21,891 nt of DNA from Scenedesmus sp. ARA3 (lineage: Eukaryota > Chlorophyta > Chlorophyceae > Sphaeropleales > Scenedesmaceae): contig RWJK01001924.1 of assembly GCA_004335835.1 (NCBI GenBank), positions 2,608 through 24,498 on the forward strand, in the 5' to 3' direction. Shown piece by piece: positions 222 through 21,823 of this stretch. How positions within the stretch are numbered: the first letter of the stretch is position 1; every line of letters starts with the position of its first letter. The notes below the pieces were generated by a model. It worked only from the letters and a program-made list of their open reading frames with translations, was not told the origin of the DNA and did no database searches. Both the position numbers and the translations under genes were made by a program.

Positions 222-1533
222 CAGGGCCGTGAGGTAGCATCAGCAATGAGATACACATCGACAGTACAGCAGCAGCACAGGGCACCAACCAGACAGCACC
301 AACGCACAGGCTCAGCAGGCTCTGACTGCGTGCCGTCCAGGTGCATTAGCAACATGCTGCACATGCTACCACATGCATGCCGCTTGCCGTCACCTAGCCT
401 GCTGATATACAGCAGCAATTACCCCTCAATCACCCGCCATGTAGCAGCACCAGAGCTGCTGTTTACAAGCGCACCTGCAATACGCCCTGGCTGTCTTCAG
501 CAGCACATGACCGCATTGACACCATCCCACCCAATCAAACCAATGCCCAGCAGAAACAACACGGATGTACGACACTACAAAACACATTGGTTGGTCGACT
601 CGAATAATAACCCAGAATCTAGAAATGCTGCCGCACCTGTGAAGCGTCCTGGCCTCTGCCCAGCAGCACGTGGTCGTACAGCAACCATAATCCGGCCTAA
701 TCAAACATAACTACACCAAAAACAAATTGACAGCAACCACGCCAGCAGCACAGTATAACCATATGCCGCACCTGCGACGCGTCCTGGCCTCCTCCCAGCA
801 GCACGTGGTCGTACAGCGGGCTGATGGCTGCGCTCTGCACGAAGCGGCCTGTCTTGTACGTCTTGAGCGTCTCCAGGCTGGCGATGTCCACCAGCTTGGC
901 AGTCTTGTCCAGGCTGGCGGTGATCACGTAGCTGCCGTCAGGGGACACCTGGCGAGGCAGAAGGCGGGACAGCAACAAAGACAGCAACAAAGGCAGCAAC
1001 AAACAGTGAGTGGGGCGCAAGGGCTGTACAGGTGGCGACAGGCGGGTCTTGTCCAGGCTGGCGGTGATCACGTAGCTGCCGTCAGGGGAGACCTGCGGAC
1101 AGCAAGGCAGATACAAGAGGTGTGTGAGGGCAACGTAGGTGGTGGAGCAGCACAACATGGCAGCGACAGAGGCGCAGCAGCAGATTTTCAAGGTGATCAG
1201 GTCCGCCGAGTCTAGCGCTACTGCACTGCGCAGCCGCAGCACACGCCTCACACCTAAACGCGTGCAGGCAATGCTTGCAACTGTCCGCATCTGCTGGGTT
1301 CCAGTCCAGCCAGGGTTCAGGACAGCCTTGCGCTGCCCGCACCTGCATGTCCTGGATGGCGTCCTCATGCACACGACACCCATGAACACAGACGTGTAAG
1401 GTTCAGCTAACGTCTGTGTCACAATTCAGGCCATCCCAAGCCCCCACCTGCATGTCCTGGATGGCGTCCTCGTGCACCTGCACCTCCTGCAGCATGTCGC
1501 CGGTCTCAGTGTCCCAGCGCCGCACCTGAGGGC

Positions 1534-1573
<40 letters not shown>

Positions 1574-2063
1574 CGCGGCATGGTAAGCAGCAGTGCAAGA
1601 GGGCCAGGAGGCCAGCAGAAGAGCCATCCACACTGCAGGTGGCTGTAGCAGTAGGAAGGCAAGCATACTCAAGCAGCTGCTGGGAAGAGACTGTGCACCG
1701 GGACAGCTGCTGGTGCTGACCATGGTGTGGAGTTGAGCTGCTGCTGCTGCCGCTGCTGTTGTTGCTGCTGCCATTGCTGCTGCTACGGCTGCAGCCACTG
1801 CGACTGCTGCTGCTCCTGTGCTACTGTGGCACCAGCACTCTTGAACCACAAGCTGCTGCTGCAGCCTGTACCGTGCTGCCGCTGCTGCTGCTGCTGCTGT
1901 CATTCAGCCTGCAGCGCGCCGCGCCTCACCCATCCTCCGTCGTGGCTGGTGATGAGCTGCCTGTTGCAGTCTGTGAAGAAGACGCGCGTGATGCGGCCCT
2001 TGGGGGCGGTGTAGCTGGCCTTGGGCGCGCTGCCCTGGCGCTCACCAAAGTCCTGCAAGCGGC

Positions 2064-2100
<37 letters not shown>

Positions 2101-2475
2101 CACAGGTCTGCAATGAGAGGAGGGTGGCAGGATACGGGCAAGGAAACAGCGCAAGAAAAGATCAGCATCACACAGCCCGGCTCTTGGGAAGCTATGCTAT
2201 TTTTATCACTGCACGTTGTGCGAGTCACGTTGGCGGCATCACTGCGTCCACCAGGTGCAGCTGTGGCGGGCTGCCCATGAAGCTGTATGTTCTACATGTC
2301 ACTATTCATGACATGTTATTGTGTCGTATTAATTTGACATGTTATTATGACATGTCACTTGTTTGAGCTAGCACACCTGCAGGTCCATGTCCACCAGGTG
2401 CAGCTGTGGTGGGCTGCCCATGAAGCTGTCAGTGGTGAACGCCAGCAGCTGCTCACCCACCGACAGGTGGCACGC

Positions 2476-2520
<45 letters not shown>

Positions 2521-4224
2521 GGCAGTGTTGACGTGAGCAACGCCCTTGACTGCGTTGCAGCCGCTGCTGGGGAGACGTCACAGTAGGATTTGCAGGCAGG
2601 TGCTACTTGCCATAGCTGGCGCTGCTGCTGCTTCTGTTGGCACGCTGGGCTGGCTGCTGGCCACGTCACTGCTGCCACAAGCCACACGTGTAGCACCAGC
2701 TGCTATGAACATATGCCCACAACAGCACACAGACTGCAATGAACATATGCCCACAACAGCACACACACTGCAATGAACATATGCCCACAACAGCACACAG
2801 ACTGCTGCTCTGCCGGCTGTTCATCTGCTGCCACTGACTGCCGGCTGCACACCACCCCCACCCGACTGCGCCGCTGCAAGCACAGCTGTGGTCGTCCCTC
2901 CGCCCAGCCACCTGTGCCCCGCGCCACCAGCCGTCAGCTGCTGTGCTCACCTGCAGGGCTCGTTCAAGCTAAGCTGCAGCCACCCTAAAACCCACAATTA
3001 CTGCTGCATTCATCAGCGCTTGCACCAGCTGCCACCAGCTGCGTGCCTCGTTCACGCACATTTGCAGCACGATGAACCCCACAGCTGCTGCATGCTTCGT
3101 CGATCCCCAGCCACCAGCTGCGTCCCTCACCTGCATGGCTCGTTCATGCGGATCTGGTGCAGCTCCTGGCCGGTGGGCAGGTTCCACACGCGCACCGTCT
3201 GGTCCGCTGAGCTGGTGATCAGCCGGCTGCTGTCCAGCGTGAAATCGCAGGTCCACACCGCACCGTTGTGGCCCTCATAGGTGCCCACACGCCGCCCGTC
3301 ATCCGCATACCACAGGCATGGCTGCAGGTTCTTGGCGCAGGACACGAGCAGGTCTCCCTCTGCATTGTACTTGACCTGCGTCAGCGGGCGCTCGTGGCCC
3401 TGCAGGGGGCAGGACAATGCAGCAGAGCAATGCAGCGGAGCAAGGGGGTGAAGGGCGTGGGTGCAGTGTTGGTGGTAGAGCAGTAGTAGAGGGTGTGAGC
3501 GCGCGCTGGTGGCCCTGCAGGGGGCGGAGGAGGTCGAGGGCCGGTGCCGAGGGATGTGTATCTATCCACTGCTGTGCGCCATGCTTGTGCAGTGGCAGGT
3601 TGCTATGAAGCTGCGGCTGCATGCTGCTGCTGCTGTGTGGGCGACGCTGGGGTGGGTTCGGCTGACAGTGGCTAGCTGCATGGCATGCAGTGCCAGGCAA
3701 CAGCCACGCTGCTGCAGTGCCAAACCAGGTGCTGCTGCTGTTGCTGCTGCCAGACAATCATGCACTGAGTTAAGTGAATCACACTGGCAAGTTCTATGGG
3801 CATGCCGCTGCAGTGGCGTCGTGTTGTGTGGTGTGGCGTATGGGGATGTTTGAGCTGCGTCTTCATGCTGATGGCGTGCCACGTGTGCAGCTGCTGCTAT
3901 TGCTGCTGTCAGCAGATCAACATGTATGCAGTCTGCGCTCAACGCTGCTAGCTCGGCAGCTTGGAGGAGCCAGTTTCAGTTCAGGCTGCTCAGCTGAATG
4001 GTGCAGGCCCGTCACTTGCTGGCTGGCACTGCTTGCTGCTGCTGCCAGGCCTTGACACGTGTGCATGGCTGCAAGGCTGCATACGTTTGTTACGTGACTG
4101 ACATCAGCAAACAAGCTGCAACATTAGACGGCAAGCTGCTGCATGCTGCTGTGCACTAGGGAGAGCCCACCACCTGCTGCTGCAGCTGCCATACCCAACC
4201 CACCTTGAGCAGGTAAGGCCGCAT
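13..4224 (-). CDS. EIF3I: Translation initiation factor eIF3 subunit i (WD40 protein), 3' end off window
   Basis: Scaffold subunit of cytosolic eIF3, which promotes 43S pre-initiation complex assembly; a WD40 beta-propeller. Exons in transcript order: 4224-4204, 3399-3131, 2476-2377, 2052-1930, 1525-1448, 948-772, 160-13. Their phases join without a frameshift to give 305 residues; the family is usually about 325, so only the last blade end is missing beyond the left edge, where a GTGCGAG donor follows. The protein begins MRPYLLK then [12 protein letters not shown], the family's typical start. Other matches are FTTDSFMGS (about 112-120), [19 protein letters not shown] (198-216), [13 protein letters not shown] and [16 protein letters not shown] near the end. 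The 21-nt first exon was chosen because it supplies the conserved MRP..LLK and splices in phase 0. Four acceptors follow sense CTG tracts. Copies of exon edges lie in several introns. It is divergent from RRP46. Identity is near certain; exon edges are inferred. Confidence 0.94.
187..219 (-). repeat. CTG tract (sense), 11 units, before eIF3i exon 7
   Basis: Lies 26 bp upstream of the acceptor at 161-163. Between them is a telo-box-like AAACCCTAA. Confidence 0.9.
631..682 (-). repeat. Echo of eIF3i exon 6 3' end
   Basis: 52-bp copy of 766-817 with about four mismatches, offset 135 bp, lying downstream of exon 6 in transcript sense. It covers the donor and the codons for [14 protein letters not shown]. 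Confidence 0.9.
1046..1095 (-). repeat. Echo of eIF3i exon 6 5' end
   Basis: 50-bp copy of 902-951 with one mismatch by eye, offset 144 bp, lying upstream of exon 6 in transcript sense. It carries the CAG acceptor and [16 protein letters not shown]. Confidence 0.93.
1341..1372 (-). repeat. Echo of eIF3i exon 5 3' end
   Basis: 32-bp copy of 1446-1477 with one mismatch, offset 105 bp downstream in transcript sense; reads HEDAIQDMQ followed by GTGCGG, so a donor is present. Confidence 0.9.
1536..1571 (-). repeat. CTG tract (sense), 12 units, before eIF3i exon 5
   Basis: Ends about 10 bp upstream of the exon 5 acceptor. Confidence 0.9.
2066..2098 (-). repeat. CTG tract (sense), 11 units, before eIF3i exon 4
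   Basis: Ends 13 bp upstream of the first base of exon 4. Confidence 0.9.
2246..2286 (-). repeat. Echo of eIF3i exon 3 3' end
   Basis: 41-bp copy of 2389-2429 with one mismatch, offset 143 bp downstream in transcript sense. The last exon bases and donor are not kept. Confidence 0.9.
2481..2519 (-). repeat. CTG tract (sense), 13 units, before eIF3i exon 3
   Basis: Runs almost directly into the CCAG acceptor. Confidence 0.9.
2705..2804. repeat. 34-bp tandem repeat, three copies
   Basis: Unit begins ATGAACATATGCCCACAACA; copies start at 2705, 2739 and 2773 and are nearly identical. It lies in intron 2 of eIF3i. Confidence 0.93.
2940..3069 (-). repeat. Two echoes of eIF3i exon 2 3' end
   Basis: 2946-2970 copies the donor junction at 3126-3150 (CTCACCTGCA-GGCTCGTTCA, offset 180). 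A more diverged copy is at about 3041-3069. Confidence 0.75.
3501..3530 (-). repeat. Echo of eIF3i exon 2 acceptor
   Basis: GTGGCCCTGCAGGGGGC at 3509-3525 repeats the exon 2 acceptor region at 3394-3410, offset 115 bp upstream in transcript sense, with further partial match on both sides. Confidence 0.8.
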
Positions 4225-4644
4225 CCTAAAGATGTGTATTAAACTAACAAGCTATCTGCAAGATCCTCCTCTCCGCAGCTGCACTAGACGAGAGCGGTGG
4301 CTGTTCTGCGCAGGGATGGATGGAGCGAAGTTTGAAGCGTGGCAGTGGCGGCTGCGTAGCGGATCCCTGCAAATTTGCAACTTTCAGCTCGCAGATCGAA
4401 CGGTTCCTCTGCGCGGGGATACAGTACTGTCAGTATTGCAGTGTTATGACCTAGCACCCTTCAAAAGGCCTGTGCGGCAACTGCTTGTTCGTTCATTACC
4501 TTTACGTCCATATAGTAGTACAAATTTGTTTGGATTCCACTTCGCTGCCTAAGTGAGAGTTCTGCTACAGCAGCAGCAGTCACTGCGGCAAACCCTCTTC
4601 AACTGGTTGCATTGTGCTCCGTCGCCGTGACAACCTGTAACAGC
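4225..4644. promoter_or_regulatory. Divergent promoter region between eIF3i and RRP46
   Basis: This 420-bp gap separates the start codons of two genes transcribed away from each other, so it must hold both 5' UTRs and both core promoters. It is richer in A+T than the flanking exons in its first 330 bp. I see no convincing TATA box. An open reading frame on the plus strand (4232-4552) has no recognisable family and is treated as chance. Confidence 0.6.
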
Positions 4645-5718
4645 ATGCAGCAGCATCAATTGGTTGGTCAGGATGGCCACAGAGCCAAGGGCAGGCTGCC
4701 CAGCCAGATGAGGTGCGGCCACTGCCAGCAGCAGCAGAACAGCAGCTGAGTAGACCACCTGGCACCACCTCACTGTCAGACACCACTCATCATCAGTAAC
4801 CCCTGAACAAGCGCACAGCAACGATACTTTAACCTCTCAGCGCAGCAATATCGAAAGTACACAACAAACTCGCGCTTTCTGCTGCGCCTGCTGCGCCTGC
4901 TGGCGCTGCCGCCTCACCTTCCTGCAGGCCGCTGCTGTGTGAGCGCTCCGTGCTGTCCCGCGCGGACGGCTGCGCCAAGTGGGCCCAGGAGGGCAGCGCG
5001 GTGCTGGCAGCGGTGCACGGGCTGCACCAGGCCGGGCAGCGGCGCGAGGACGCGGAGCGGGCCGTGATTGAGGTGCTGGTCAAGCCGCGCAACGGGCTGG
5101 CAGGTGCGGGGCAGCTCCAGCTGGGTGGTTGGCGGGTTCTAGCGTTGAGGTCTGGCAGCGCCAGAGGGTTGTGTTTGTCATGGGCTGATGAGCTGCTGCT
5201 GCTGCTGCTGCTGCTGGGTGGTGCATGGGCTGACGCGCGCTGGACAACAGTGTGCGGCTGAGCAGCTGCAACGCCAGCTGCCGTCCCTCTGCGCACTCAC
5301 CTAAGCTACTCGGTACTGTGCTGCTGCTGCTGCTGCTGCTGGCTCAGGCCCTGCTGAGCGCGAGGCTGAGGAGATGCTGCGTCAGCTGCTGGAGCAGGTG
5401 CTGCTGACAGCACACCACCCGCGCACACTCATCCTGGTGGTGGTGCAGGTGCGCGGCTTGTTGTCGGAATGTGGTCAACACACAATGCAAATGGCCGTCC
5501 TGGCGGTGAGCCAGGGCTGAGGCAGCCTAGTGCTGGCAGCAGCTGCGTGGCAACTTCAGGATGCAGCGCAGACTGTTCTCCAAGCAGCAGGATGCCAGCT
5601 GCGTGGCAGTCCCTGATGTGCATGCAGCGCCAAGTGCATGCATTTCCTGCAGTACAGGCTGTTGCAGAGACGGCGATGCCTTTGCACCAATGTACAGCAA
5701 CATGCTTGTGATACGAGC

Positions 5719-5776
<58 letters not shown>

Positions 5777-6724
5777 AGGTGCTGCAGGCTGACGGGTCGC
5801 TGCTGGCTGTGGCCATCAACGCAGTGGCAGCTGCACTGGCTGATGCAGGGCTGCCGATGCGCTCCATGTTTGGTGAGGGCACACGCAGCAGCAGCAGCTG
5901 CAACAGCAGCAGCACTTTGAATGTGCGGGTCGTGTCGTGCGCTGCGTGTACGATGAAGGGGTGAAGTGGACGCGATGCATGCGCCAGGTGTCGCCAGTGA
6001 GTGGGCATAAGGCATACCGACAGCTGCCTCTGGGTGCAGGCTGCAGCCATGCGGCACGCCCGCCTCTTCTGCTGCTGACTGAGGGGTTCCCTTGGTGCTG
6101 CATGCTGTTTGTTGCGTCCGCTGCCGCTGCTGCTGCTGTAGCTGGCGTGTGCTGTGCGTTTGGAGCTGACGGCACGCTGGTCATCGACCCGGATGCAGCA
6201 GAGGAGGCGGCAGCCGGCAGCGTCATCACCGCTGCCTTCCCCTGCAGCCACACCCTGACACAGCAGCATGGCAGCAGCAGCAGCAGCGCTGCAGTGCCAG
6301 CCCTGTCCCTGCCTGAGGCCAGCCTGCTGCTGCACTGCAAGGGCCGGCTGGGCGCGCCGCAGCTGGCGTCTGGGCTGGAGGGCTGCAGGAGGGGCTGCCA
6401 GGGCGTGGCCAAGTTTGTGGCGCTGGCACTGACCAATAGCTTCAAGGTGCGTGCGTTATGAACAGGCTGACTGAAAAGCAGCGTGATGTGCAATAATGGC
6501 TGGCGCTGAGGTGGACTACTTTCTGACTTGATTTTCTTGTGGGGGTCCAGAGTTCTTCAGATCGCATGCCAAGGCATGGTGAAAGGGAAGGTGGCTGGCG
6601 TTGCTGCTGCCGGCAAGCAGCGTGCAGTTGGTGTGCGGCTTATGCATGGATGCATGGTGATGTTGGTTGGCGCAGCGTTTTTGTGTGCTCAAGCAATGGC
6701 ATGGTACAGCACATGCATGAGCTG

Positions 6725-6762
<38 letters not shown>

Positions 6763-6815
6763 GGCGCTGCTGCTTGCAGGACGCCATGGTCAAGAGCTTC
6801 GACCCAGCAGTCTGA
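4645..6815 (+). CDS. RRP46: Exosome complex core subunit RRP46 (RNase PH family)
   Basis: Ring subunit of the RNA exosome (human EXOSC5), acting in nuclear and cytosolic 3'-to-5' RNA processing and decay. Eukaryotic members are normally catalytically inert and structural; that is family knowledge. Exons: 4645-4712, 4928-5103, 5348-5448, 5779-5872, 6142-6446, 6780-6815; the phases close exactly into 259 aa plus TGA. Landmarks: QDGHRAKGRLPSQMRPLLC (9-27, counterpart of the usual R-DGR--NQLRPL), RADGCAKWAQEGSAVLAAVHG, IEVLVKPRNGLAGPAERE, VLQADGSLLAVAINAVAAAL (116-135), and GVCCAFGADGTLVIDPDAAEE. The start at 4645 was chosen because it opens the frame leading into DGH...QMR and splices with AG|G to restore Arg-Pro. 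His replaces the usual Arg of the DGR motif. Residues about 180-200 hold a Ser/Gln-rich insertion from CAG/AGC codons. Two introns end in long CTG tracts. Exon 1 is the least certain part. Confidence 0.9.
5193..5216 (+). repeat. CTG tract (sense), 8 units, RRP46 intron 2
   Basis: Mid-intron, not next to the acceptor used. Confidence 0.9.
5321..5341 (+). repeat. CTG tract (sense), 7 units, before RRP46 exon 3
   Basis: Followed directly by GCTCAG and the exon. Confidence 0.9.
5722..5775 (+). repeat. CTG tract (sense), 18 units, before RRP46 exon 4
   Basis: Runs straight into the CAG acceptor with no spacer. Confidence 0.92.
6726..6761 (+). repeat. CTG tract (sense), 12 units, before RRP46 exon 6
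   Basis: Followed by a GC-rich spacer and TGCTTGCAG. Confidence 0.9.
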
Positions 6816-8083: not shown

Positions 8084-8085
8084 TG

Positions 8086-8581: not shown

Positions 8582-11529
8582 ATGGCCGAGCAATCCTTCG
8601 TGCCTGACTTTAGTGAGTTCTATAACCAGTATGAACTGTCTGACGTGAACCTGTTCATACAAGAAGAGGAACATGCTGCGCCATGCAGCAGCAGCAGCAG
8701 CGGCATCATGTCAGGAGAGGAGGAGGAAGAGGAGGCGTGTGAGCCAGTTGCGGAGCAGGGCCCGAGCAAGCCACGGAGAAAAGCTCTTCCTGGGCACAGC
8801 ATGGTGCTGGTGGCCTTCTCAGCGTTCTTCAAGGCCAAGGTGAGGCCCAGCAGCTGCCTCTGCATGCACACGCAGCAGCGTGGCAAGCTGGCACAGCACC
8901 CAGCACAGCACCACTACCACTACTAGTGTTGTGCCACAGCTCAGCAGCAGAGTGTTGTGCCACAGCTCAGTGAGCTGGCACAGCACTGGCTGCAGCACCG
9001 AGCAGAGCACCACTGCCTGCCTGGCAGGCAGGGCTTTCCCAACACATGCTGCCGTTCTGTCGTATTGCTTGCTATGGCCATTGACAGCCATGTAGCCCCA
9101 AACTGCTGCTCTGAAGATGTGCTGCACCGTCGCAGCTGAAGAGCTGGGCTGCTGGGCCGTTCAACAGGCCAGAGATCCTGCTGTCAGTTCCTGCAGGTGA
9201 GGCAGCAAGCCTTGCTGGAAGCTCACTAAGACTCAGCCAGGGACCAGCTGCTGCTGCTGTATGCCAGATGCAGCAAACCTTAAGATTTGATTTTTGAACA
9301 CATGTGCCATACAGCCTTGCAGGAAGCAGACAGGAAGCTCTTGTCATTGTGTAGCACTCACTCTCCCTGCAAGCAAGGCTGGGCAGCAGTGCGCTGCCGC
9401 TGTTGGTAATGCTGCTCTGCAATGCTGCTGACAACACTCAAGCACTCGAGTCAAGCATATATGCATGCTGAGGTAACGATCATCAATCCAGCTGGTCGCC
9501 TGCTGCTCTGCGGCTGGCCCCTGTGCTTGCAGGACAGCTGGAGCTAGGGGAGCTGCTGCCGTGCTGCTCTGCATTGCTTCCTGTTACACATCAACACAAG
9601 CATGTGGAGAAACCTATGCGCAGTTTGTACTGGCCACCTGCCCCCTGTGCTTGCAGGGCAGCTGGAGCTGGGCGAGCTGCTGCTGCAGGCCATGTACCAG
9701 TGCACGCCAGACCTGGGCAGCACCAGCCAGCTGCAGCTGCTGCAGCTGCTGGCACTTGCAGACAGGTACGGCGTGAACAAAGTGCTGAGCGCAGCAGTGG
9801 CGGCGCTGCAGGCAGTGCCGCAAGCAGAGCTGCAGTGGGAGACGGTGATTGGCGTGTACACGCTGCCACCGGGCTGCACAGATGCCTGCAAGCCACTGAT
9901 GCCGGCTGTGCAGCAGCAGCTGCAGCAGCAGCTGGGTGACCTGGAGCTGGCACTGGCTCACAAGCGGAAGCGGCAGCGGCTGCTGGTGCTGCCGCACACG
10001 GTGCTGCTGCTGCTGCTGCAGGATGAACAGACCAAGGTGGCTGCAGAGAACACAGGTACAGGTGGCTGCTGCGGCTGAGGGCGCAATGCCTGCATGTAGC
10101 TCGCATACAAGCTGCAGGCTTGTGATCAGTTGGCATCAGTAATCCGATTACTTGGCAAGGACACAGGATTTGCCGGCTGCAGATGTCGGTGTGCTTGTGT
10201 ATTCACCGCAATGTTGCAACGCAGGTCCAGCAGCCATGCCAGTACAGCCAGCGCTGCTTGAGCGTGGCAATGGCTTTTGCTCGTCCAGGCAGGCACTGCT
10301 GGAGCAGCTTCCGCTGTATCTGCTGGCAACAGGAACAATATGTAGGGTGTTCATACAGCACTGTAGATGACTTCTTCGCTGCACTGCTGGCTCCGATGCC
10401 GTGCTGCTTGCAGTGTTCCGCGTCATTGAAGTGTGGCACAGCCACCAGCAGCAGCACAGCAGCAGCAGCAGCGATGAGGAACTGACCCAGCTGCTGCAGC
10501 AGATCCGCATGCAGCACTGCAGCCAGCCGTTTGTGGCCACTGTGCTGTGCGACAGCCCGCTGGTGGCGCAAGCCTTCAGCCCGCGTGAGCTGCGCCTGGC
10601 CTGCCTCTGCAGCAGCGCCGGCGGGGTGCAGCCCGATGCTGAGGCTGCTGTCGCCGCAGCAATGCAGAAGGTGCAGTGCCCAGTGCTTGCCCGCTTCCCG
10701 GCCTGGGTGAAGCCGAAGCGGCTGGCATCAGCAATGACCAAGCTGAGCATGGCGCGGCAGGTGGGCGGCTGTGTGGGTGATGCCTGGATCGCTGCTGCGG
10801 GCCGTGCTTATTGGCTTGCTGGTTGTTGACGTCCATAGGACAAGCAACTGGGATCACAGCATGCAACATCCAGGATGCCGTGCAATATCTGTTCCTTTAT
10901 GATGTCATCGTCTGCGGCATGCACACATTTGCTGACTGTGAGAAGAGAAGAAGCGGCTGGCAAACTACATCTTACAGGGTGCTGCTGCTGCCTGTGTATG
11001 CGCGTGGGTGCAGCTGAGCCTTGCGGACCTGCAGCAGCAGCTGGAGGCGCTGCAAAAAGCAGGCACGACCAACTCCTACACAACACTTGTATCGGGCTCG
11101 TGGCAGGGCGAAACATTTCAGGCGCGGCTGTGCGTCACGGCTGCAGCTCAGCCGGCTGACGCGGCTGCCGATGGCGCGCAGCTGGCAGCAGCCAACAGCA
11201 GCATGCCTTTCACTGTGGGGGTATACTTTGGTCCCCAGCATAGCAGCGTGGATGTGCTGCGCCTCGTCAGCTTCAGCGTCACGGCAAGTGCAACAGCGCC
11301 AGCGCTCGCGCGCCGCGGCAGCGGCAGCGCGTGGGTGCCCTCAGCTAAGGACATCACCTGCCACCTGGTGCGGCAGGGCTTCAGCTCTACCGAGTGGGGC
11401 TGGGTGGATCTGTTCAGGTATGGTGCGGTGGACGGCTGGGCTGCGTTTGAGGCGAAGTTGCGTGCCGGCAGCCTGGTGCATGCGGGCGACTGCCTGCACC
11501 TCAAGGTGGAGGTCACGGAGGTGCTGTAG
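8582..11529 (+). CDS. BTB/POZ domain protein with BACK-like middle region
   Basis: BTB proteins usually dimerise and often act as CUL3 ubiquitin-ligase adaptors; that role is inferred from family only. Exons: 8582-8839, 9136-9196, 9657-10055, 10414-10760, 11014-11529; phases close exactly to 526 aa plus TAG. The BTB fold starts with LSDVNLFIQ (19-27), is interrupted by a Ser- and Glu-rich insertion (about 36-53), resumes with PGHSMVLVAFSAFFKAK, then EILLSVPAGQLELGELLL and LLQLLALADRYGVNKVL. A BACK-like helical region follows (about 160-340), with LPHTVLLLLLQ, AAENTVFRVIEVW and FSPRELRLACL. The last exon encodes a strand-rich domain ending CLHLKVEVTEVL, which could be TRAF/MATH-like, but that is weak. 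The start codon is the only in-frame ATG before the conserved SDVNL. A partial copy of the exon 3 start lies upstream in intron 2. Confidence 0.85.
9519..9558 (+). repeat. Echo of BTB exon 3 acceptor and 5' end
   Basis: Copy of 9643-9682, offset 124 bp upstream, with a few mismatches. It includes the CTGTGCTTGCAG acceptor and the codons for GQLELGELL. The frame remains open after the copy, so it might act as a competing acceptor. Confidence 0.85.
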
Positions 11530-12300: not shown

Positions 12301-12459
12301 GCAGTGGGTTAAAGCTGATGCTGGAAGCTGAGTTTTGAGATTCAGATGCAGCGACCTTGTCACATGATATACTGTATCCCTTATGACATCACACCACTGC
12401 CGCCACTGGCAGGCCTGCCTCGCTGCACAATGCCACCACGGTTGGTTGTCGAGAAGCCC

Positions 12460-12493: not shown

Positions 12494-12780
12494 CCCACTT
12501 TCGAGCCAATGACAGGCTCATTGGGCAACCACTACATCAAGCATCCTGGATTTCATCATGCTACAGGCTCGCCGCCTGTGCTGCCAGCATAGCACAGTGG
12601 CAGCAAGCTAGTAGCCACCATTAAATGGGCAAGTTGCCCTCGCATTCTGCCGCTGCTGCCGCGGCGGCGGCCGCCATCTCGTGAAGGGGCGCCTGGTCAC
12701 CAACCCAGCAGGCTCATCCTCGCCTGCAGTCATGTAAAATGACGAATTGATGTTCTCCGACTGGCTCTATGCGGCATAAA

Positions 12781-13093
12781 AAGCCCAGCAGGCTCTTCTC
12801 CTGCTCAGGCAGTGCTACCTCCAATGCTTGCAAGCGCGCCAGCATGTCGCCCTTCACAGCGCCGCTCAGCCTGCTGCGGGGCCCCACCGCTGCCACTGCT
12901 GCCGCTGCCTTAAGTTGCTTCTGCCCATCAAAATCCTAGCAGGCTCTTCTCCTGCTCCGGCAGCGCCGCCTCCACCGCTTGCAAGCATGCCAGCATGTGG
13001 CCCCTCACAGCGCCGCTCAGCCTGCCGTCGCCTCTGCTGCCGCACTGCTGCCGCCACGCTGCTGCTGCTGCTGCCTCACAAAGCTGCTGCCCA
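12781..13093 (-). repeat. Two degenerate copies of the Psb27-like C-terminal exon in its 3' UTR
   Basis: The coding end at 13097-13200 recurs twice downstream in transcript sense, at offsets of 166 and then 151 bp. The nearer copy still reads LSGAVRGHMLACLQAVEAAL, then LPEQEKSLLGF and TGA. The farther copy keeps SLLGF but has lost the stop and reads on. Confidence 0.88.
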
Positions 13094-13922
13094 TCAAAAG
13101 CCCAGCAGGCTCTTCTCCTGCTCTGGCAGCGCCGCCTCCACTGCCGCCAAGCGTTGCAGCACGCGGCCCTTCACCTCCGCGCTCAGCCTGCTGCGCGGCC
13201 CTGCGCTTTGGTAGAAGCGGCCCAGCTCGCTCAGCACGCCTGCAGGCGGCAAACAGCAGCAGAAAGAATGTGTCAGGTGTAAAGCAAACATAATTATTAG
13301 TTGTAGCTGAAAACGGCCTCAGGCAAACAGAGAGAAGCAGCCTACCTGAGACAGCGCGTGTAAGGAGAGAGCATGGCGGCAGGGGCAGCAGCGCATCAAG
13401 GGGCTGCGCCACAGCCACCAGCTCACGGCGTGCGCCCTTCAAGGCAAGTCCTGGAAGATAGTGTGCACAGACGTGTGCGCAGCAGCGGAGGCAAGCCGTG
13501 CTGCTGTTCAGCGGCGGCAGCTGCATTCGTGCAGCCAGCAGTGTGCCAATTAGGCATGCCGCCCACGGTTTCGGGACCGCCGCTGCTTGCAGCTCATGTC
13601 CAGCCCCACCCTCTTTCAGCCAATACCAGCTGTCCCGCCCTCTAGGATACAATGCATATCCGCCCTCTGGGATACTATGAGTATCACTCACCCCGCATCT
13701 CGGTGTGTGAGGGGTCCCCCGCCACTGCCGGGTTGTCCTGCCACTTGCCCACAAACTCCCTCACCAGCTCCTTGGCGGGGTCGGCCTTGCGCCGCACCTG
13801 CAGCAGGAGGCAGTGCAGCAGCAACACACACTGAGAAGGGGCCTCTTGAACAGGCGCTCAGCAGACTCCCTCACCAGCTCCTTGGCGAGGTCGGCCTTGC
13901 GCCGCACCTGCAGGGGGGCAGT

Positions 13923-13964
<42 letters not shown>

Positions 13965-14175
13965 CACACACTGAGTAGGGGGCTGTTGAACAGGCGTTCG
14001 GCACACTCCCTCACCAGCTCCTCGGCGGCATCAGCCTTGCGCCGCACCTGCAAGGGGGGAGTGTGCCGCAGTGATTTGAAGTGATGCGTATTCATATTAC
14101 GCTATTCCCCGGCTAGTTTTCAGCTGCTGGTGTTGGACTGCTGCTGCCGTGCTGCTTATGGAGTCATCAATGTGA

Positions 14176-14218
<43 letters not shown>

Positions 14219-14910: not shown

Positions 14911-15104
14911 TTGGAGCGGTGGTGCTGGCCAATGAAGCTTCGATCAAGCCGGTGCGACAGCCGAAGTGGTGACGGGCAAGAACAGCAGTGGCTCCAATAT
15001 CTACAAGGTCTTCAATGCGCGTAACGTTGAACGACGAGTTCATGTAAGCATGACAGCACTGTTGCATCTGGTGTTTGGACCCGTGAGACCCCATCACTGG
15101 ACTG
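14911..15104 (-). promoter_or_regulatory. Upstream region of the Psb27-like gene
   Basis: About 190 bp between the Psb27-like start codon and the TGTAA of the upstream DCC gene, so promoter and 5' UTR must be compact. No clear core element was recognised. Confidence 0.4.
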
Positions 15105-15109
15105 TTACA
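15105..15109 (-). terminator. TGTAA polyadenylation signal, DCC gene
   Basis: Plus-strand TTACA. On the minus strand GTGTAACA is followed by GTGATGGG, resembling the flanks of the 34-bp element at 12460-12493. Confidence 0.5.
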
Positions 15110-15776
15110 CATGGTCAAAAGTTCAGTACTGCTACCAGAGCCGACTGCTGAAGCATGCATGCACGCCTCCTATCGCAAAATCCAGCTTATCAAAAACACA
15201 GGCAGCAGCAAGGCCTGCAGCAACTGCCTGCAGCATTGGTGCATGCCTGGACTTGCTGCCCAAACCTTGGCACAGCCTGCTGCGCTGGTCAACTGTGGCA
15301 TGGAGACATTATGTATGTGCTATGCTAGCGTAAGCTGTATCAAACAAACATAGCTGTATACAGGTGCTTATTGCAGCACCTAAGTTTTAACTGCGCCAGG
15401 CAGTGCCAGTGGCAGTGGCACATCCAGCACTGGGCCAACACGCAGCAAGTGAGCCACAGCCAGTCTCGGACACCTAGCTGCTGCTTCTGCTCTACTTGCC
15501 CCAGCGCTACCAGCGGCACTTGTGCTGCCCCTGCCACACCCCACTATTCATCACACTGCTGCTGCTGCAGATGCTGCTGCTGCAGATGCTGCTGGCGCCC
15601 GCGCACGCCTGCTTGCCCCAGCACTGCCAGTGGCGCTGCTTGCCCCACCTGCTGCTGCTGCTGCTGCCGCCGCCAGCTTGTGGAGCGCTACTTGCCCCAG
15701 CGTTGCCGCAGGCGCTCGCGCTCTCTCCGTTCCACACACCCCACCCCCGCAGCACACTGCTGCCCAGCTGGTGGCG
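15110..15776 (-). other. 3' UTR of the DCC gene with copies of its coding end
   Basis: No separate gene is seen. Three degenerate copies of the last coding bases (real copy 15774-15815) occur at about 15684-15728, 15609-15640 and 15491-15520. The nearest still reads ERERLRQRWGK then TAG. Confidence 0.7.
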
Positions 15777-15914
15777 CTACTTGCCCCAGCGCTGCCAGTG
15801 GCGCTCGCGCTCCTCCTTCCACGCGTCATCCGCCATGGCCTGCTCCCTGCAGCGGCCCAGCACCAGGTCCTCCGCATCAAGGAAGCGCTCCAGCACGCTA
15901 GTGTCCGGCACCTG

Positions 15915-15950
<36 letters not shown>

Positions 15951-15992
15951 TAAGAGAGCGTCAAGGAAGCGCCAGCACCGATGTGTGCGGCA

Positions 15993-16032
<40 letters not shown>

Positions 16033-16086
16033 CTTTTAGCAGTCATAGAGCGTCAAGGAAGCGCTCCAGCACCGATGTGTCTGGCA

Positions 16087-16124
<38 letters not shown>

Positions 16125-17771
16125 CAGCGTCAGAGAGCACCAAGGGAGCGCCTCAACAGAGACGAGTCAGGCACCTGCAGCAGCAGCTTCAGCTTACACC
16201 AGCATACAAGTGTGCGGCCATAGGCAGCGCCTGCGCGCCACATGAAGCTGTGCCGGCAATGCAGCGCTTGTTTCAGCCATTTGCTGAGAAAACGCAGATG
16301 GACCCGAGTGTGTTGTGGCTGTAGGCGTGGCGGCAGCCCAGCCCCTCACCTGGCAGACCTTGCTGCGCCCGAACCAGCTGTAGCGGTTGGCGGCCACGAT
16401 GTCGTACACAGCCTCACGCACGGGCAGCGGCACCTGCAGCAGCAGCAGCAGCAGCAGCAGGGGCGGCAGCAGGGGCGGCGTTGAGCGTGAGCACTGATGG
16501 CATGCCACGCGGCTCTGGGCTGCACAGTGGCAGCTGCTGCCTGGTGAGCCTGCCGACACTGACGGCCAGCACACAGCATTGCTTGCAGGTAAACGGTTGT
16601 GCAATTACCATGCCTAAAACTGTCATATTACACTCCTGGGCTGCTCTGTCTGGCCAGGACACCCCTGGGCTGCCCTACCCAGGGACCCCAATCAAGTGTG
16701 CCCTTGGCGCAGACATCACACGGAGAGGCATCTCCTGGGTCGGCGCTCTGGTTTTGTAGGCGGTGGCAACATGCTGTCAAGGCCGCAGCAAGCACGCATT
16801 GCACTGCTGCTGCTGCTGCGCTACTCCGTATGTACAAATGCCATCAATGCTACAGCTGCTGCTGCTGCTGCCGCTGCTGCTGCTGCTGCTGCACGCCGTA
16901 CCTCCAGCGCTGCGGTGCTGCCCTCGCTCCAGCGGTCCTCCTGGATGAAGATAAAGCGCTTGAGCGCGTCACCGCGGCTGAAGCCCAGCCTGGCGCAGCA
17001 GCAGCAGCGGCAGCAGGCGCGTGCAGCAGGTGTGAGCGGCTGGTGTTGTATTGTAGATGGCCCACCATGGGCGACAGCTCCTGCAGGACACACTGCTGCT
17101 GCTGCTGCTGCTGCTGCTGCCGCTGCTGCTGTCTGTGCTGCATGCCAGATTCTGTATGCGGCGATGTCGACTTACACAGCAGCCGGCACACATAGATGAG
17201 ACAGCGTGCAGTGCCACTGCAGCAAGAAGGTATGCAAACAAGGCAGCGTGCTGCCATCCAAGGCTGGTGCTGCTGGTGCTGCTGCTGCTGCTGCTGCCTG
17301 GCTCACCCCCGCAGGTATGGCTCTGCCTTGGGGCTCTGCACGCTGCAGAAGAGCAGGTTTTTCTGCGGGTCCCGCTTGATGATGAAGCGTACAGCGGCAT
17401 TACACAAGTTGCACACGCCTGGAAGGGACACAACAAGCGGAAGTCAACAGGCACCAGCACAGTGCTGCAGAGGGTGGGCAAACCCACTCCCGCTATTGCC
17501 CACAGTACTAGCAATGTACTGCTAGCAGTGCGGGCCCATGCGTACCCTGCACAGTGCTAGCAGTGCGGGCCCATGCGTACCCTGCACAGTGCCGCATGAA
17601 AAATTTCACGCTTGAGGCATACCAGGTCAAAAAAGGGCATCTGCTGCTGACGCACCAGGCCCTTGCAGGAGCTGCTTCTCGCACCATCTGCTCACCATCG
17701 TACATGATCACCCTCCCAGTGGCTGCTAGTTGGTGAGCCATGTTGCCGGTTGCTCCAGCTGCTCCCGCCAT
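15777..17771 (-). CDS. DCC-family (DUF393) thiol-disulfide oxidoreductase-like protein
   Basis: DCC proteins carry a conserved Asp and a CxxC pair and are thought to be thioredoxin-like; biochemical roles are poorly known. Exons found: 17771-17696, 17418-17307, 16989-16902, 16433-16350, 15911-15777. They encode 164 residues. Features: GRVIMYDGVCNLCNAAVRFI (19-38, with CNLC), FIIKRDPQKNLLFCSVQSP, FIFIQEDRWSEGSTAALE, VPLPVREAVYDIVAANRYSW then FGRSKVC, and a terminal acidic/basic helix ending HWQRWGK. Between ALE (92) and VPLP the family usually has about 17 more residues, so one short phase-0 exon in 16434-16901 was probably missed. A weak candidate ends at 16679 (reads TLDWGPW). The start is the first ATG after an in-frame stop (TGA at 17843-17841). 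No strong targeting signal. The last exon has multiple echoes on both sides. Confidence 0.85.
15916..16185 (-). repeat. Tandem array: CAG tract plus echo of DCC last-exon 5' end, three extra units
   Basis: The real exon start (about 15870-15911) is followed upstream in transcript sense by three copies at 15957-15997, 16047-16092 and 16135-16182. Each is bordered by a CAG tract (15916-15948, 15998-16030, 16092-16121). Each copy preserves GTGCC or similar after a CAG acceptor; the first two copies keep the SVL--FLDA-like codons, the third is most diverged. Confidence 0.92.
16437..16460 (-). repeat. CTG tract (sense), 8 units, before the DCC VPLP exon
   Basis: Joins the CAG acceptor directly. 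Confidence 0.9.
16856..16891 (-). repeat. CAG tract (sense) just after a DCC donor
   Basis: Interrupted tract starting about ten bases after the GTACGG donor of the exon at 16902-16989. Confidence 0.85.
17093..17119 (-). repeat. CAG tract (sense), 9 units, DCC intron 2
   Basis: Mid-intron, CAG in the gene's sense. Confidence 0.85.
17279..17296 (-). repeat. CAG tract (sense), 6 units, just after a DCC donor
   Basis: Begins about ten bases after the GTGAGC donor of the exon at 17307-17418. Confidence 0.85.
17521..17590. repeat. Perfect 35-bp tandem duplication
   Basis: 17521-17555 and 17556-17590 appear identical. It lies in intron 1 of the DCC gene and includes GCGGGCCCATGCGTACC. Confidence 0.93.
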
Positions 17772-19076
17772 TGCTGTGATTGTGGGGACTGCTGCTGTCC
17801 TGCTATGTTCCACGCCTGTAGTGCTTGTCACAGCCGACCATCAACGGATCCATATAGAGTGGTCAATACTACGTGCTTCGGCTGCAATGGTTCGTGTGGA
17901 GCTCAGCATACAGGACAGCACAGCTGCCGATACGTTTGTCAGGAGTGGTGTCGGAAATATTCCAACAGCCGTTGCGTAAGCCAAGCAGATGAAGGAACAA
18001 CCGAAAGTTACGGCTACAATTCTCACCCATTGCCTTTCAATGGACAGCACGGCAGGTGCTGGCTGTAGTTTAGGGTTTGAAAGTGAGGTATTTTCAAAGA
18101 CCTATCAGTGGTTCTCATCCTGTGTAAATCGCACGACGAGGTCCGCCACACTCTGTGATGAAGTCTACATGTAGACATCCACTGGGGCTGAGCTCAAAGG
18201 AGCTTTTGGGCCTCTCTAAAATCCCAAGAGGGTCTCTCGTGATGCCATGACCACTAAAACATAACAGATCAGAATTTGATATACGCGCCTGAGTATGCCT
18301 GTCAATCAGCCTGGCAGGCTGTCTCTGGCAAGTGAAGTGCTTGTGCTGCCTGAGTCCCCGTCAGTTGAACAGTCCAGCAACGCACTTGATTGTCAACTGG
18401 CTATTCTATCACACATTGTTGCTGAGCTGTACTGCAAGCGGTTAGTCATGTGTGTTGTCAAAAAACCCAGGTGCCGCAGCCATCTGCAGCTGCAACACAT
18501 GAGCAGACTCGCACACTGCTAGCGAGCTGAGCTTGCAGGAAACGCTGACAGAGGTGCTACAGTTGCAGACCATAACCTCTCAGGGAGCGTGAGCAGCTAG
18601 GCAGGCGCACCATTCATTGCTTGACAACACATTGGGCCGCCTACCCTGAGTGTTGTGACGTTTGCCAAGAACAAACAGCGCTGCGGAGGTGCATGATCAG
18701 CCATGTTACAATAAAAATGCAACAGAAAGTTCAGTTCATCCATTCTCAGCCCCAGAAACCCAGCACACAGCACTGGTCACATGCCATCTGCTCTGCTGCG
18801 CGGCATAGTGTCGCTTTGGCGCAGAGCAAGCGTGGCAGTAGCTGTGTCGCCCGGCAGCGGCTGCCACCTTCTGTGGATGCGGCGAGACAGCAACAGAACC
18901 GGCACACCAGCATGGAGCCCCGATACGACTGTCAGCCAATAATGTCAACTTGCAACCTTGTGCGTTCTCTTTGTGCGTTCTGGTCACACTACGACATTGC
19001 ACTGTGGGCCTGCTAGTTGCGGCTGTGGTGTCTCAACTGCAACATGCGGCCCTGAGCAAAAGATAAAATAGGCCGT

Positions 19077-19156
19077 GAACTGTCATCACATCAACGCCGA
19101 TGGCGTTGATGCTATGGCTTGATGAGTAACATGATGATGATGAACTGTCATCACAT
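19077..19156. repeat. Hairpin between direct repeats
   Basis: CATCAACGCC (19089-19098), loop GAT, GGCGTTGATG (19102-19111) is a perfect 10-bp stem. GAACTGTCATCACAT occurs at about 19077-19091 and again at about 19142-19156. Confidence 0.75.
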
Positions 19157-19602
19157 GCTGCAACTCACGCGTACATGTGCCGCTACCCACCATTCAACAT
19201 AACAGCCAACTTTGTGTGTGCTGTAGCAGACAACAACCCAAGTTTTTATGTGTGCAGAGTGCAACTACTAACAAACACAATATTGTGTTCTGCCCCCCTC
19301 CCCCCACCCCAACATCAACACCCACCTCACCAAGTCCATGTCATGGCAGGCCTGCGGCAGCCACCCAGGTGCATCCGAACGGCTCATTTTGTTATGCGCC
19401 ACTGCAAGGCTGGCAGGTAGGCAGCCGCCATATGCTGCCACGCACACAGCAGTGCTCCCGCACAGTGTGATGGTGCCTCTGACAATCAGGGCAACGGGCT
19501 GTTGCCGCACAGCCACATGTAGGAGGCAGACAAACTGCAAGCAGCTGACAAACAGCAGCATGCTGGCGACCTTGCGTCAAGCAACCGCATGGCATGTCAG
19601 TT

Positions 19603-19697
19603 ATGACAGTCAGCTGTCATGTTATGACAGTCAGACGTTCCCCCGCCTCATACACCAGCCCCTGCAGGCCGCATACAGCCCCTGCAGGCCGCATACA
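19603..19697. repeat. Short tandem duplications
   Basis: TTATGACAGTCAG occurs twice near 19604-19633. GCCCCTGCAGGCCGCATACA occurs twice in tandem within 19658-19698, leading directly into an ATTAC run. Confidence 0.8.
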
Positions 19698-19712
19698 TTA
19701 CATTACATTACA
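19698..19712 (-). terminator. Triple TGTAA, probable poly(A) signal of the TmcB-like gene
   Basis: Plus-strand TTACA three times in a row, read as three contiguous TGTAA pentamers on the minus strand about 550 bp past the stop. It may equally be a chance pentanucleotide microsatellite. Confidence 0.5.
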
Positions 19713-20136
19713 TGCTCCACTCAACGAGGAGTGGGAACCCCAGTCAGGAGCCAACGAGAGGCTCATAGGGGGATACAACAGCTGAGCCTGCAGGCAAACA
19801 AAACGTGCAGCAAATGTGCACAAGCATGCTCGTGCAGTGTCCCCCCTAGTCAAGTGTTCACGCCCAGCGCACATCCCACAGCTGCCAACAATGACAGTTC
19901 TTGCGCCCCCTCCCCTTCGCCGCCAACTCAGGTCAACACCTGACGATTAGTGCAGCGCTGCTGACAGCGTGTTGCGGTGCTGCCTCGTCACATGCCTCTG
20001 GCAAGGCGCACAACAATCAGGCACGCTGTCGAAGCAAACTTGATTAAATCAAAGCACCCGTCAAGTCGGATTGTATATCTGCTAATGTAAGCACCAGCAG
20101 CACACTCCCCTCCCCTTCCCCCTTCACCCCAGCCCC

Positions 20137-20207
20137 CTCACGCATTGTCCTCCCACTGACCACCACCGCCGCCCCCATCCATGCCACCCATAGCCATGCC
20201 AGGCCTC
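20137..20207 (-). repeat. Echo of the TmcB-like coding end in its 3' UTR
   Basis: Degenerate copy of 20264-20328. It still reads GMAMGGMDGGGG, then QWEDNA and TGA on the minus strand; the real end reads QWEDDA and TAG. Confidence 0.88.
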
Positions 20208-20263
20208 TGAAACATCGCCCTCGCAACTTCTACGCATTCAAACAAAAGCAAGCCTCCCTGCGT

Positions 20264-21823
20264 CTACGCATCGTCCTCCCACTGACCGCCGCCGCCATCC
20301 ATGCCGCCCATGGCCATGCCAGGCCCACTGCCGCGCCCACCACCCCCGTAGTGCCCCGCCAGCGCCAGCACACCCCCACCCATACCACCCCCACCCATCT
20401 TGCCACCTGGCGGAGGCGGCAGCAGCATGCCAGGCATGGACCTGCGCCCCGCATCCATCCCTCCTAACCCCATCCCCATGCCGCCGATCATGCTGCTGTT
20501 GCCGGCCCCTCCAGGCTCCCCCATGGATCCCATGCGCAGGCTGGCGCCCCCATCACGCCGCAGCCCCAGCACGTGCTGCTTCACGTGGCCCTCGATGTCC
20601 ACCTCGGCCGGCAGCTGGCTCATCATGCCGGCCATGGCTTTGGATTCGGCGTGCAGCCGAGCCACGTGCGGGCGGAAGACCTTGGTCACGAAGAGCAGCA
20701 CCGCCACCAGCGTGCACACCAGCAGGATGATGTGCAGCTGCTTGACCTCCTCGAAGCGGGAGATGGTGAAGTCCACAAAGAGCCCGGCAGCAGTCTGCAA
20801 GTGTGTACAGCAGGAGATTTCGAATGGCACAGGAATGGTTAAGGAGGTAGCAGCAGTGTATCGCAGCAGGGGAGGCAGGGCTGCACTGTGTGAGGGGCTG
20901 CGTCCGCGCATGCAGCTTGATGCGGTTGCTTTTGCAGGTTGTGCTGTTTTGCAACAAGCTCAGCAACCTGGGCATTCAAGAATAACATCATATAGCTGCT
21001 AAGCTGTGTGTGGGCTGCAGCAGCAGCTCTCAAAACGCCGCAGCAGCCATGCCACTTGGATGGCTGGCAGCACGAGCTAGTCTGGCAGCACAGTCAGCAG
21101 CACCGCGCTGCACCTGCAGGCTGTCACTAATTTCTGCTGCTCAATATATAAACTCATCAGTCTGGATGGAAAAAGAAGCTATGAGGCTGCTGTGCTGCAT
21201 GTGGGCTGCCGCAGCAGCCATGCCATCGTGCCGCACCTGCAGGCCGTCGTACATGTCCATCGCGGCCACCGCCGTCACGTACTGGTAGCTGCGGGCGGAC
21301 GCAAAAGACACAGCAGCAGCAGGGTGTCAAGCAGGTGTGTGTCGAGCAAGCCACGCTGACGCAAGTGCAAGTCATGTGCTGGTAGCTATAGGCGCAGACA
21401 CCTAAACAGGGCTGTGCTGCAAGGTTATGCTGCTGCCAGCCACGTTGTGTGCAATTACCAAGCTGTAACCAAGCTGTCTCATCTCGCGCAAGCTGATGAT
21501 GAGGTTTGCGCATGTGGGCAGGGTTCTGCCCGCCACACATTGTACCGCCACCCACATTAACATCACCCCTGGGCCACGCACCTGGTGTGGTTGGGGAAGG
21601 CCAGGTCGTTGCTCAGCGCCGCGAACACCGTCATCTGGTCAATGTAACGCGACACCATGGCGTCCAGCCCGGAGTGCGTGATGTCGTAGTATGGGTCGCC
21701 CTTGGGCAGGCAGGTGGACTTGTCGGCCCTCAGGCAGGCCTGCGTCTTGAAGAAGAGGTTGGAGAAGTCCTCGTTGGCAAACGCGGCCGCGGGCGTGCGC
21801 GGGTCAAAGCTCAGGCCCTCGGC
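20264..21823 (-). CDS. Membrane protein C-terminus, TmcB ('tiny macrocysts')-like; 5' part off window
   Basis: Exons in the window: 21823-21582, 21288-21237, 20794-20264, in phase, giving about 274 residues plus TAG. The first exon encodes a probably non-cytosolic domain (LFFKTQACLRADKSTCLPKG, YYDITHSGLDAMVSRYIDQM), then YQYVTAVAAMDMYDGLQ. The last exon holds a clear membrane span, LHIILLVCTLVAVLLFVTKV, followed by basic FRPHVARLH, the juxtamembrane AGMMSQLPAEVDIEGHV, and a Gly/Met-rich tail ending GQWEDDA. The set 'YDIT-GLDAM ... span ... SQLP-E-D-EG-V' recalls large algal proteins annotated as tiny macrocysts B-like, which often carry PAS or cyclase domains; none is visible here. Function is unknown. 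The acceptor of the first exon follows a CTG tract that runs off the edge. Confidence 0.7.
21107..21130 (-). repeat. Possible echo of the TmcB-like 52-nt exon end
   Basis: GCACCTGCAGGC-GTC resembles the donor side of the exon at 21237-21288, about 125 bp downstream in transcript sense. Short, so only moderately supported. Confidence 0.5.

What the first reader, a model, noticed from the sequence alone, without database searches (positions are those of the whole stretch)
631..21130. Exon 'echoes': partial copies of exon ends beside their own exons in five of six genes
Copies of 25-70 bp from an exon's 5' end lie only upstream of it, and copies of its 3' end only downstream, in eIF3i (exons 2, 3, 5, 6), BTB exon 3, Psb27-like exons 3 and 4, the DCC last exon and the TmcB-like end. 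That polarity is what tandem duplication of segments spanning a splice junction or stop codon would produce. Identity ranges from about 98% to barely recognisable, so the process looks ongoing. It would enlarge introns and 3' UTRs and scatter decoy splice sites. I know of no standard feature class for this.
Basis: partly seen in the sequence, partly recalled or inferred. Interest (0 to 1): 0.9.

Follow-up and report, generated by a model that had tools for sequence, protein, structure and literature searches.

The report
Exon-end copies stud an alga's introns
In a freshwater green alga, about a quarter of the tested exon edges have partial copies of themselves, usually with the splice signal, about 100-150 bases away in the neighbouring intron; this looks like repeated local DNA duplication kept in check by selection on the protein, and it can mislead gene annotation.

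Summary
The genome is Tetradesmus obliquus or a very close relative (eIF3i 100% identical over 306 aa). In the window 13 of 104 exon-end/flank searches hit, 0 of 624 controls. In a 190 kb sample, 5' exon ends have an upstream copy at 48 of 163 acceptors and 3' ends a downstream copy at 36 of 154 donors; wrong-side 14 and 11; controls 4 of 4130. Copies are direct (213 versus 1 inverted), offsets peaking at 100-150 bp; they mostly keep AG or GT and carry frameshifts. Misassembly is unlikely: an OLA1 model from another assembly repeats an echo's peptide. Tandem duplication across coding edges plus purifying selection explains polarity, spacing and orientation. A position-blind version does not explain why duplicates favour exons about sixfold, or why homology often stops at the splice motif. 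Exon-templated homogenisation is my unproven addition. Stop-codon ends echo as often as donors (3 of 13), so splicing is probably not the cause. Single junction-spanning duplications are in print; my searches found no report of this scale.

The parts
772..948 (-). eIF3i exon 6 (real exon), with echoes on both sides
   Evidence: the spliced eIF3i containing it is 100% identical over 306 aa to OEZ85_004795
629..682 (-). echo of the 3' end of eIF3i exon 6, with donor motif GTGCGGC, downstream
   Evidence: 93% over 54 bp to 764-817; exon part 637-682
1046..1095 (-). echo of the 5' end of eIF3i exon 6, preceded by CCGCAG, upstream
   Evidence: 98% over 50 bp to 902-951, offset 144
1448..1525 (-). 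eIF3i exon 5 (real exon)
1335..1372 (-). echo of the 3' end of eIF3i exon 5, downstream
   Evidence: 95% over 38 bp to 1440-1477, offset 105
2377..2476 (-). eIF3i exon 3 (real exon)
2246..2286 (-). echo of eIF3i exon 3 that stops 12 nt before the donor, downstream
   Evidence: 98% over 41 bp to 2389-2429, offset 143
2927..2969 (-). weak copy around the 3' junction of eIF3i exon 2, about half intronic
   Evidence: 81% over 43 bp to 3107-3149; below the cut-off
3495..3525 (-). weak copy around the 5' junction of eIF3i exon 2
   Evidence: 90% over 31 bp to 3380-3410; below the cut-off
9657..10055 (+). BTB gene exon 3 (real exon)
   Evidence: open reading frame across my five-exon model; BTB and BACK domains in the spliced product
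9514..9559 (+). echo of the BTB exon 3 acceptor and 5' end, upstream
   Evidence: 91% over 46 bp to 9638-9683, offset 124
13692..13797 (-). Psb27-like internal exon (real exon)
13862..13913 (-). first upstream echo of that exon's 5' end
   Evidence: 96% over 52 bp to 13752-13803, offset 110
14002..14063 (-). second upstream echo, in a 140-bp period array
   Evidence: 86% over 64 bp to 13752-13815, offset 250; tandem array
13094..13239 (-). Psb27-like last exon, through the stop codon
12926..13025 (-). copy of the last exon's 3' end, stop region included, downstream
12775..12884 (-). second copy of the last exon's 3' end
   Evidence: 82% over 110 bp to 13092-13201
15777..15911 (-). DCC-like last exon, through the stop codon
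15955..16088 (-). two upstream echoes of the DCC-like last exon 5' end, with CAG tracts
   Evidence: period-87 array at 15916-16187; pairs; 0.82 and 0.87 identity to the exon
15489..15735 (-). three downstream copies (15489-15537, 15609-15637, 15685-15735) of the DCC-like coding end and stop region
   Evidence: 82-93%
20177..20205 (-). copy of the TmcB-like 3' coding end, downstream
2692..2805 (.). tandem repeat inside an intron with no exon part, for contrast
   Evidence: 34 bp x 3.4

Best explanation
Echoes are the remains of repeated short local tandem duplications, typical unit about 100-150 bp and nearly always direct, whose breakpoints straddle the edge of a coding segment (acceptor, donor or stop codon). 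The copy joined to the exon body stays in use; the other lies in the intron or 3' UTR, usually with its splice site. Duplications inside an exon are removed by purifying selection on the reading frame, and that produces the polarity. Shown in the sample: locality, orientation, spacing, polarity, splice-site retention, and that echoes are mostly non-coding. Inferred: that some founders grew into arrays by later exchange between copies; that splicing tolerates echoes because they lack a complete exon (exon definition); and that the exon repeatedly re-templates its echoes (gene conversion), which would explain why exon-anchored copies outlast intron-only ones and why homology ends at the splice motif.
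For: Direct versus inverted pairs within 300 bp at 40 bits or more: 213 versus 1, with 0.03 expected from inter-locus matches; offset histogram peaks at 100-159 and again near 220-259. Polarity 48/163 and 36/154 versus 14/163 and 11/154; controls 4/4130. Stop-codon ends 3/13, like donors. Intron part of the unit still homologous in 40 of 72 nearest echoes. In 30 exon-echo pairs with homologous intron flanks, divergence looks neutral: codon positions 0.077, 0.058, 0.152; intron 0.172. Indels: 23 of 26 not multiples of three, in 63 pairs. AG kept 61/66, GT 45/52. At 31 junctions with two or more echoes, sites where all echoes agree and the exon differs fall on codon positions 1, 2, 3 as 3, 5, 35, as expected of a coding exon and non-coding echoes. 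For homogenisation: L018 exon 2126-2226 has three echoes 98-100% identical over 41-44 nt while its intron flanks are far more diverged.
Against: A position-blind tandem model fails on several counts. Opportunity for junction-spanning (exon part >=20) versus intron-only units is 7854:18738, with simulated detection 158-204/400 versus 202-227/400 (56 of 234 unduplicated flanks also score), yet observed families are 87 exon-anchored to 28 not. Homology ending 0-10 nt past the junction: observed 38/78; simulated 0.09-0.15 for neutral echoes, up to 0.34 for slowed ones. Beyond 30 nt: observed 11/78, simulated 0.28-0.58. Exon-echo and intron divergence do not correlate (rho 0.08, P 0.38), and exon-anchored and unanchored families do not rise together across loci (rho 0.07, P 0.79). 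The echo of eIF3i exon 3 lacks the junction and its flank does not align, which a contiguous duplication would not give. Wrong-side copies occur at 25 of 317 junction tests. Gene conversion was not observed directly; the codon-position ratio in the 93 pairs with unalignable flanks (3.1) is higher than my expectation from conversion alone (about 1.8-2.5).
Confidence: 0.65

Rival explanations
1. Exon-biased copying: short coding-edge segments (about 25-100 bp) are pasted about 125 bp away by a template-switching or break-repair process that prefers coding DNA, leaving unrelated spacer between the copies.
For: Homology often confined to exon plus splice motif; exon-anchored families 87 of 115; median aligned length about a third of the offset in 30 pairs at 95% identity or more (triplet repeats masked); intron flank not detectably homologous in 25 of 72 nearest echoes.
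Against: Intron flank homologous in 40 of 72; complete tandem arrays exist (for example in L008, L012, L014); only 1 inverted copy, whereas template switching often gives both orientations (general knowledge); three spacers searched in the genome matched only themselves, so no filler source was seen.
Confidence: 0.22
2. Echoes are functional elements of splicing (alternative or decoy splice sites, or stepwise intron removal), kept by selection.
For: AG and GT mostly intact; 27 echo acceptors whose flank does not match the real one position by position still have pyrimidine-rich tracts, 0.63 versus 0.67 real and 0.456 at random GCAG; an annotated OLA1 model repeats an echo's peptide.
Against: Frameshifting indels dominate; offsets are not biased to multiples of three (20 of 72); retention is only modestly above the neutral expectation summed (about 53.5 of 66 and 41.9 of 52); the pyrimidine comparison was ungapped, so modest decay plus indels can explain it; stop-codon ends echo too.
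Confidence: 0.07
3. Assembly artefact: allelic or repeat sequence mis-joined.
For: The assembly is fragmented (87.3 Mb in 1567 contigs).
Against: The OLA1 model OEZ85_012320, from a 7.56-Mb contig of another assembly, contains an echo's peptide in tandem, and a near-identical protein from contigs no longer than 1.7 kb lacks it (that assembly's DNA was not seen); echoes are diverged and carry frameshifts; copies favour one side of their exon.
Confidence: 0.02
4. Insertion of introner-like or other mobile elements with long target-site duplications.
For: Two direct copies flanking unrelated sequence resemble a target duplication.
Against: Almost no similarity between loci at 40 bits or more (9 plus-strand and 5 minus-strand hits among all locus pairs); three spacers unique in the genome; copy length varies from about 20 to 150 bp.
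Confidence: 0.02

Closest known systems
Junction-crossing tandem genomic duplication in the potato RdRp gene (PMC4974935; abstract and section list seen)
   Same: A tandem duplication crosses an intron-exon boundary and the copies carry splicing signals.
   Different: There a new intron was gained, in one gene. Here copies lie inside longer introns or past stop codons, at about a quarter of tested junctions, often in arrays.
Tandem repeats modifying gene structure in human segmental duplications (PMC2812944; start of abstract and section list seen)
   Same: Internal tandem repeats alter exon-intron structure.
   Different: Attributed there to minisatellite expansion in paralogues (section heading); here units are mostly diverged, few in number, and anchored to exon ends across unrelated genes.
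Mutually exclusive or tandemly duplicated exons (recalled)
   Same: Exon copies beside the exon with splice sites.
   Different: Here typically only one exon end is copied and copies carry frameshifts.
Introner elements (recalled)
   Same: They shape introns genome-wide in some algae.
   Different: No shared element seen between sampled loci.
Short direct duplications from adjacent nicks or staggered-break repair in plants (recalled; a paper search, did not list the primary papers)
   Same: Short, direct-only local duplications, sometimes with filler.
   Different: I know of no preference for exon ends there; mechanism untested here.

Membership tests
Tandem repeats (minisatellites) spanning an exon-intron boundary | copies direct and local | tested here: met
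   213 direct versus 1 inverted within 300 bp
Tandem repeats (minisatellites) spanning an exon-intron boundary | head-to-tail contiguous units (homology as long as the offset) | tested here: inconclusive
   met in some arrays; only 2 of 30 pairs at 95% identity or more align over 0.8 of the offset (triplets masked); intron flank homologous in 40 of 72
[quoted passage not shown]
   in eIF3i the coding sequence passes from exon to exon across introns that contain the echoes well inside them; whether those introns are new was not tested
Mutually exclusive or duplicated exons | whole exon copied with reading frame kept | tested here: not met
   partial copies; 23 of 26 indels shift frame
Introner elements | similar sequence at many unrelated loci | tested here: not met
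   (190 kb sample and three spacers)
Staggered-break or paired-nick repair duplications | arise as single events with defined break geometry | not testable with these tools
   needs strain or mutation-accumulation data

The most novel reading that the evidence does not exclude
Coding exons act as conserved master templates that keep re-copying their own edges into neighbouring introns (concerted evolution of an exon with its non-coding echoes), building arrays of near-perfect decoy splice sites at about a quarter of junctions, so that correct splicing must always pick the outermost sites of each intron.
Probability: 0.3. Interest if true: 0.82.

Novelty: new variant of a known kind. Interest (0 to 1): 0.6.

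Why it matters
If it holds genome-wide, it is a natural experiment on how introns grow and how the spliceosome tells a real exon edge from near-identical decoys with intact AG or GT. It also predicts annotation errors: one public T. obliquus OLA1 model contains a 19-residue repeat that matches an echo. Echoes may also record older exon states, which would help date the process.

Tried and rejected
Whole-exon duplication followed by decay: rejected by reasoning, because polarity would not follow. Splicing-coupled or RNA-templated copying: disfavoured, because stop-codon ends echo as often as donors (3/13 versus 36/154; small number). Coding constraint on echoes: rejected on frameshifts. Strong selection on echo acceptors: the first sign weakened because that comparison was ungapped. 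A general slow-echo claim: the codon-position ratio of about 3 suggested it, but echo-echo pairs and pairs with homologous flanks look near neutral, so it is left open. A separate class of echoes without intron homology: weakened, since simulated neutral duplicates also fail the flank test in 0.40-0.49 of cases. Recursive splicing: exons start with GT in 14 of the 48 listed starts with echoes and 21 of the 109 listed without, so not general. Spacer origin elsewhere in the genome: three spacers, only self matches. Relatives' genomes could not be searched here. Papers searched without finding the phenomenon: (listings; PMC5966456, PMC4974935 and PMC2812944 opened in part).

Limits: exon calls outside the window come from my own small HMM, self-trained on the same 190 kb, which also calls some echoes as exons; I used exons >=80 or >=100 bp to reduce this, and some remain (for example part of L006 8662-9121), which inflates exon-anchored counts. 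The other way, at least one of the 28 'unanchored' families (window 1335-1477) is an eIF3i exon 5 echo, missed because that exon was split below 80 bp. Exons of L006 (OLA1) and L019 (P450) were checked against independent proteins; L018 and L020 only against Pfam domains; the rest not. The sample left out L001, L002 and L009. Observed flank homology counts all echoes per junction, simulated only one. One search failed (N in a template) and was repeated; one search failed midway and was repeated. One search read one protein alignment row as DNA by accident (no exons called); one search left it out.
Full report
Where it is. The window is G000:C1500:2608-24498 of an 87.3 Mb genome in 1567 contigs. 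My spliced eIF3i (exons located) matches T. obliquus OEZ85_004795 at 100% over all 306 query residues, so the genome is T. obliquus or very close and the eIF3i exon model is right. A species table (PMC5966456, passages seen) gives T. obliquus a mean intron length of 462 bp, the longest of the five algae listed.

The observation. Repeats at the stated places are clear. With six gene models, 13 of 104 exon-end/flank searches hit at score 36 or more, against 0 of 624 control searches; ten have the stated polarity and the other three reflect 5' queries that overlap sequence copied downstream. RRP46-like has none, so five of six genes is correct. eIF3i exon 2 is weak.

Genome sample. 19 stretches plus the window gave 190,031 bp. 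I trained a small exon HMM on three window genes, then on the sample itself. Exons >=100 bp: 177, of which 158 lie outside the window. Upstream copies of 5' ends 48/163, downstream copies of 3' ends 36/154; wrong side 14/163 and 11/154; mid-exon 50-mers 8/81 and 5/81; stop-codon ends 3/13; other genes' flanks 4/4130 at the cut-off set from that null. Intron 50-mers have a local copy on any side in 214/1668, intergenic in 22/500. Local pairs at 40 bits or more within 300 bp: 213 direct, 1 inverted; 0.03 expected from inter-locus density. Offsets peak at 100-159 bp with a second peak near 220-259; nearest echoes have a median offset of 129.5.

Anatomy. 149 echoes at 89 junctions. Introns often run: donor, spacer, upstream-exon echoes followed by GT, then downstream-exon echoes preceded by AG, spacer, acceptor (six loci shown). 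AG kept 61/66, GT 45/52 among echoes that reach the junction within 3 nt. Indels between exon and echo are 23 of 26 frame-shifting in 63 pairs. At 31 junctions with two or more echoes, sites at which all echoes agree and the exon differs fall 3, 5, 35 on codon positions 1, 2, 3; sites at which only some echoes differ fall 71, 53, 110: the exon evolves as coding, and the third-position excess in the second class is at least partly, I infer, older exon changes.

Independent checks. OLA1 in L006 is matched exon by exon by P0122, a protein from contigs no longer than 1.7 kb (the gene spans over 5 kb, so I infer a transcript), while the annotated OEZ85_012320 (P0121) repeats ALRKRAAEENCEVVVVSAK, the peptide of echoes upstream of that exon in our genome; that the repeat stems from an echo in the other assembly is inferred. 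The P450 model in L019 agrees with OEZ86_008649 (99%), which has no such repeat. At three sites read by eye where our exon differs from its echo, the echo agrees with the other strain (OLA1 GANNV and AEEAK; P450 AVLGG), which suggests those echoes predate the strain split; other echo differences match neither strain (for example P450 FRNRA, where both strains have K and a Scenedesmus relative has R). L018 holds an RRM exon and L020 a MutS gene.

Mechanism. Tandem duplication across a coding edge gives direct copies, and selection on the frame removes all but those whose extra copy falls outside the coding sequence; that is the polarity. Intron parts of the unit remain homologous in 40 of 72 nearest echoes (z>3) and not in 25 (z<=2), much like simulated neutral duplicates (0.43-0.51 and 0.40-0.49). 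Three results go against a position-blind version. First, exon-anchored families are 87 of 115, though intron-only placements outnumber junction placements 18738 to 7854 and are detected about as well; by my arithmetic, after allowing for background, that is roughly a six- to sevenfold excess, subject to the exon-calling errors listed under limits. Second, homology past the junction ends within 10 nt in 38/78 (simulated 0.09-0.15 for neutral echoes, up to 0.34 for slowed ones) and exceeds 30 nt in 11/78 (simulated 0.28-0.58). Third, anchored flank homology is 30 of 123 (simulated 0.34-0.51). I therefore add exon-templated homogenisation, in which the constrained exon and splice motif keep rewriting the echo. 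It is inferred. L018 exon 2126-2226, with three echoes at 98-100% over 41-44 nt and much more diverged flanks, is the best single case; but echoes in other arrays drift freely (L018 8649-8805: 4-11 differences in 40), so it cannot be universal.

Patchiness. Echo rate differs strongly among 15 loci with 10 or more junctions (chi-square 76.6, 14 df, P 1e-10): L018 14/20, L006 14/25, L020 14/30, but L007 0/18, L013 0/17, L014 0/14, L016 0/27. The cause is unknown; it did not track predicted intron length (rho 0.09, P 0.74) and exon-anchored and unanchored families did not rise together (rho 0.07, P 0.79).

Comparison. The potato RdRp case (PMC4974935, abstract) shows a single junction-crossing duplication that created an intron. 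Human internal tandem repeats (PMC2812944, section list) alter gene structure by minisatellite expansion. I found no report of exon-end copies as a genome-wide feature in the searches listed under Tried and rejected; that library lacks most subscription papers.

Noticed in passing
L006:7329-8033 and P0121 (OEZ85_012320): A public T. obliquus OLA1 model carries a 19-residue tandem repeat that matches echoes in our genome; a near-identical, apparently transcript-derived protein lacks it.
   Followed up: yes
L007, L013, L014, L016: Loci with 14-27 predicted splice junctions and no exon echo, beside very echo-rich loci.
   Followed up: partly
window 4928-6814: An unlisted plus-strand gene with an RNase PH domain (RRP46-like, name recalled) and no echoes.
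   Followed up: partly
window-wide: CAG/CTG runs are frequent in introns and inside some echo units; 6.4% of the window was masked as simple repeats.
   Followed up: no
L012:5296-5569: Several copies of a 27-bp intron motif at about 90-100% identity with uneven spacing and no exon anchor.
   Followed up: no
L006 and L019 echoes versus P0121 and P0139: Some echoes keep residues found in other strains where our exon has changed; they may serve as fossils of the exon.
   Followed up: partly
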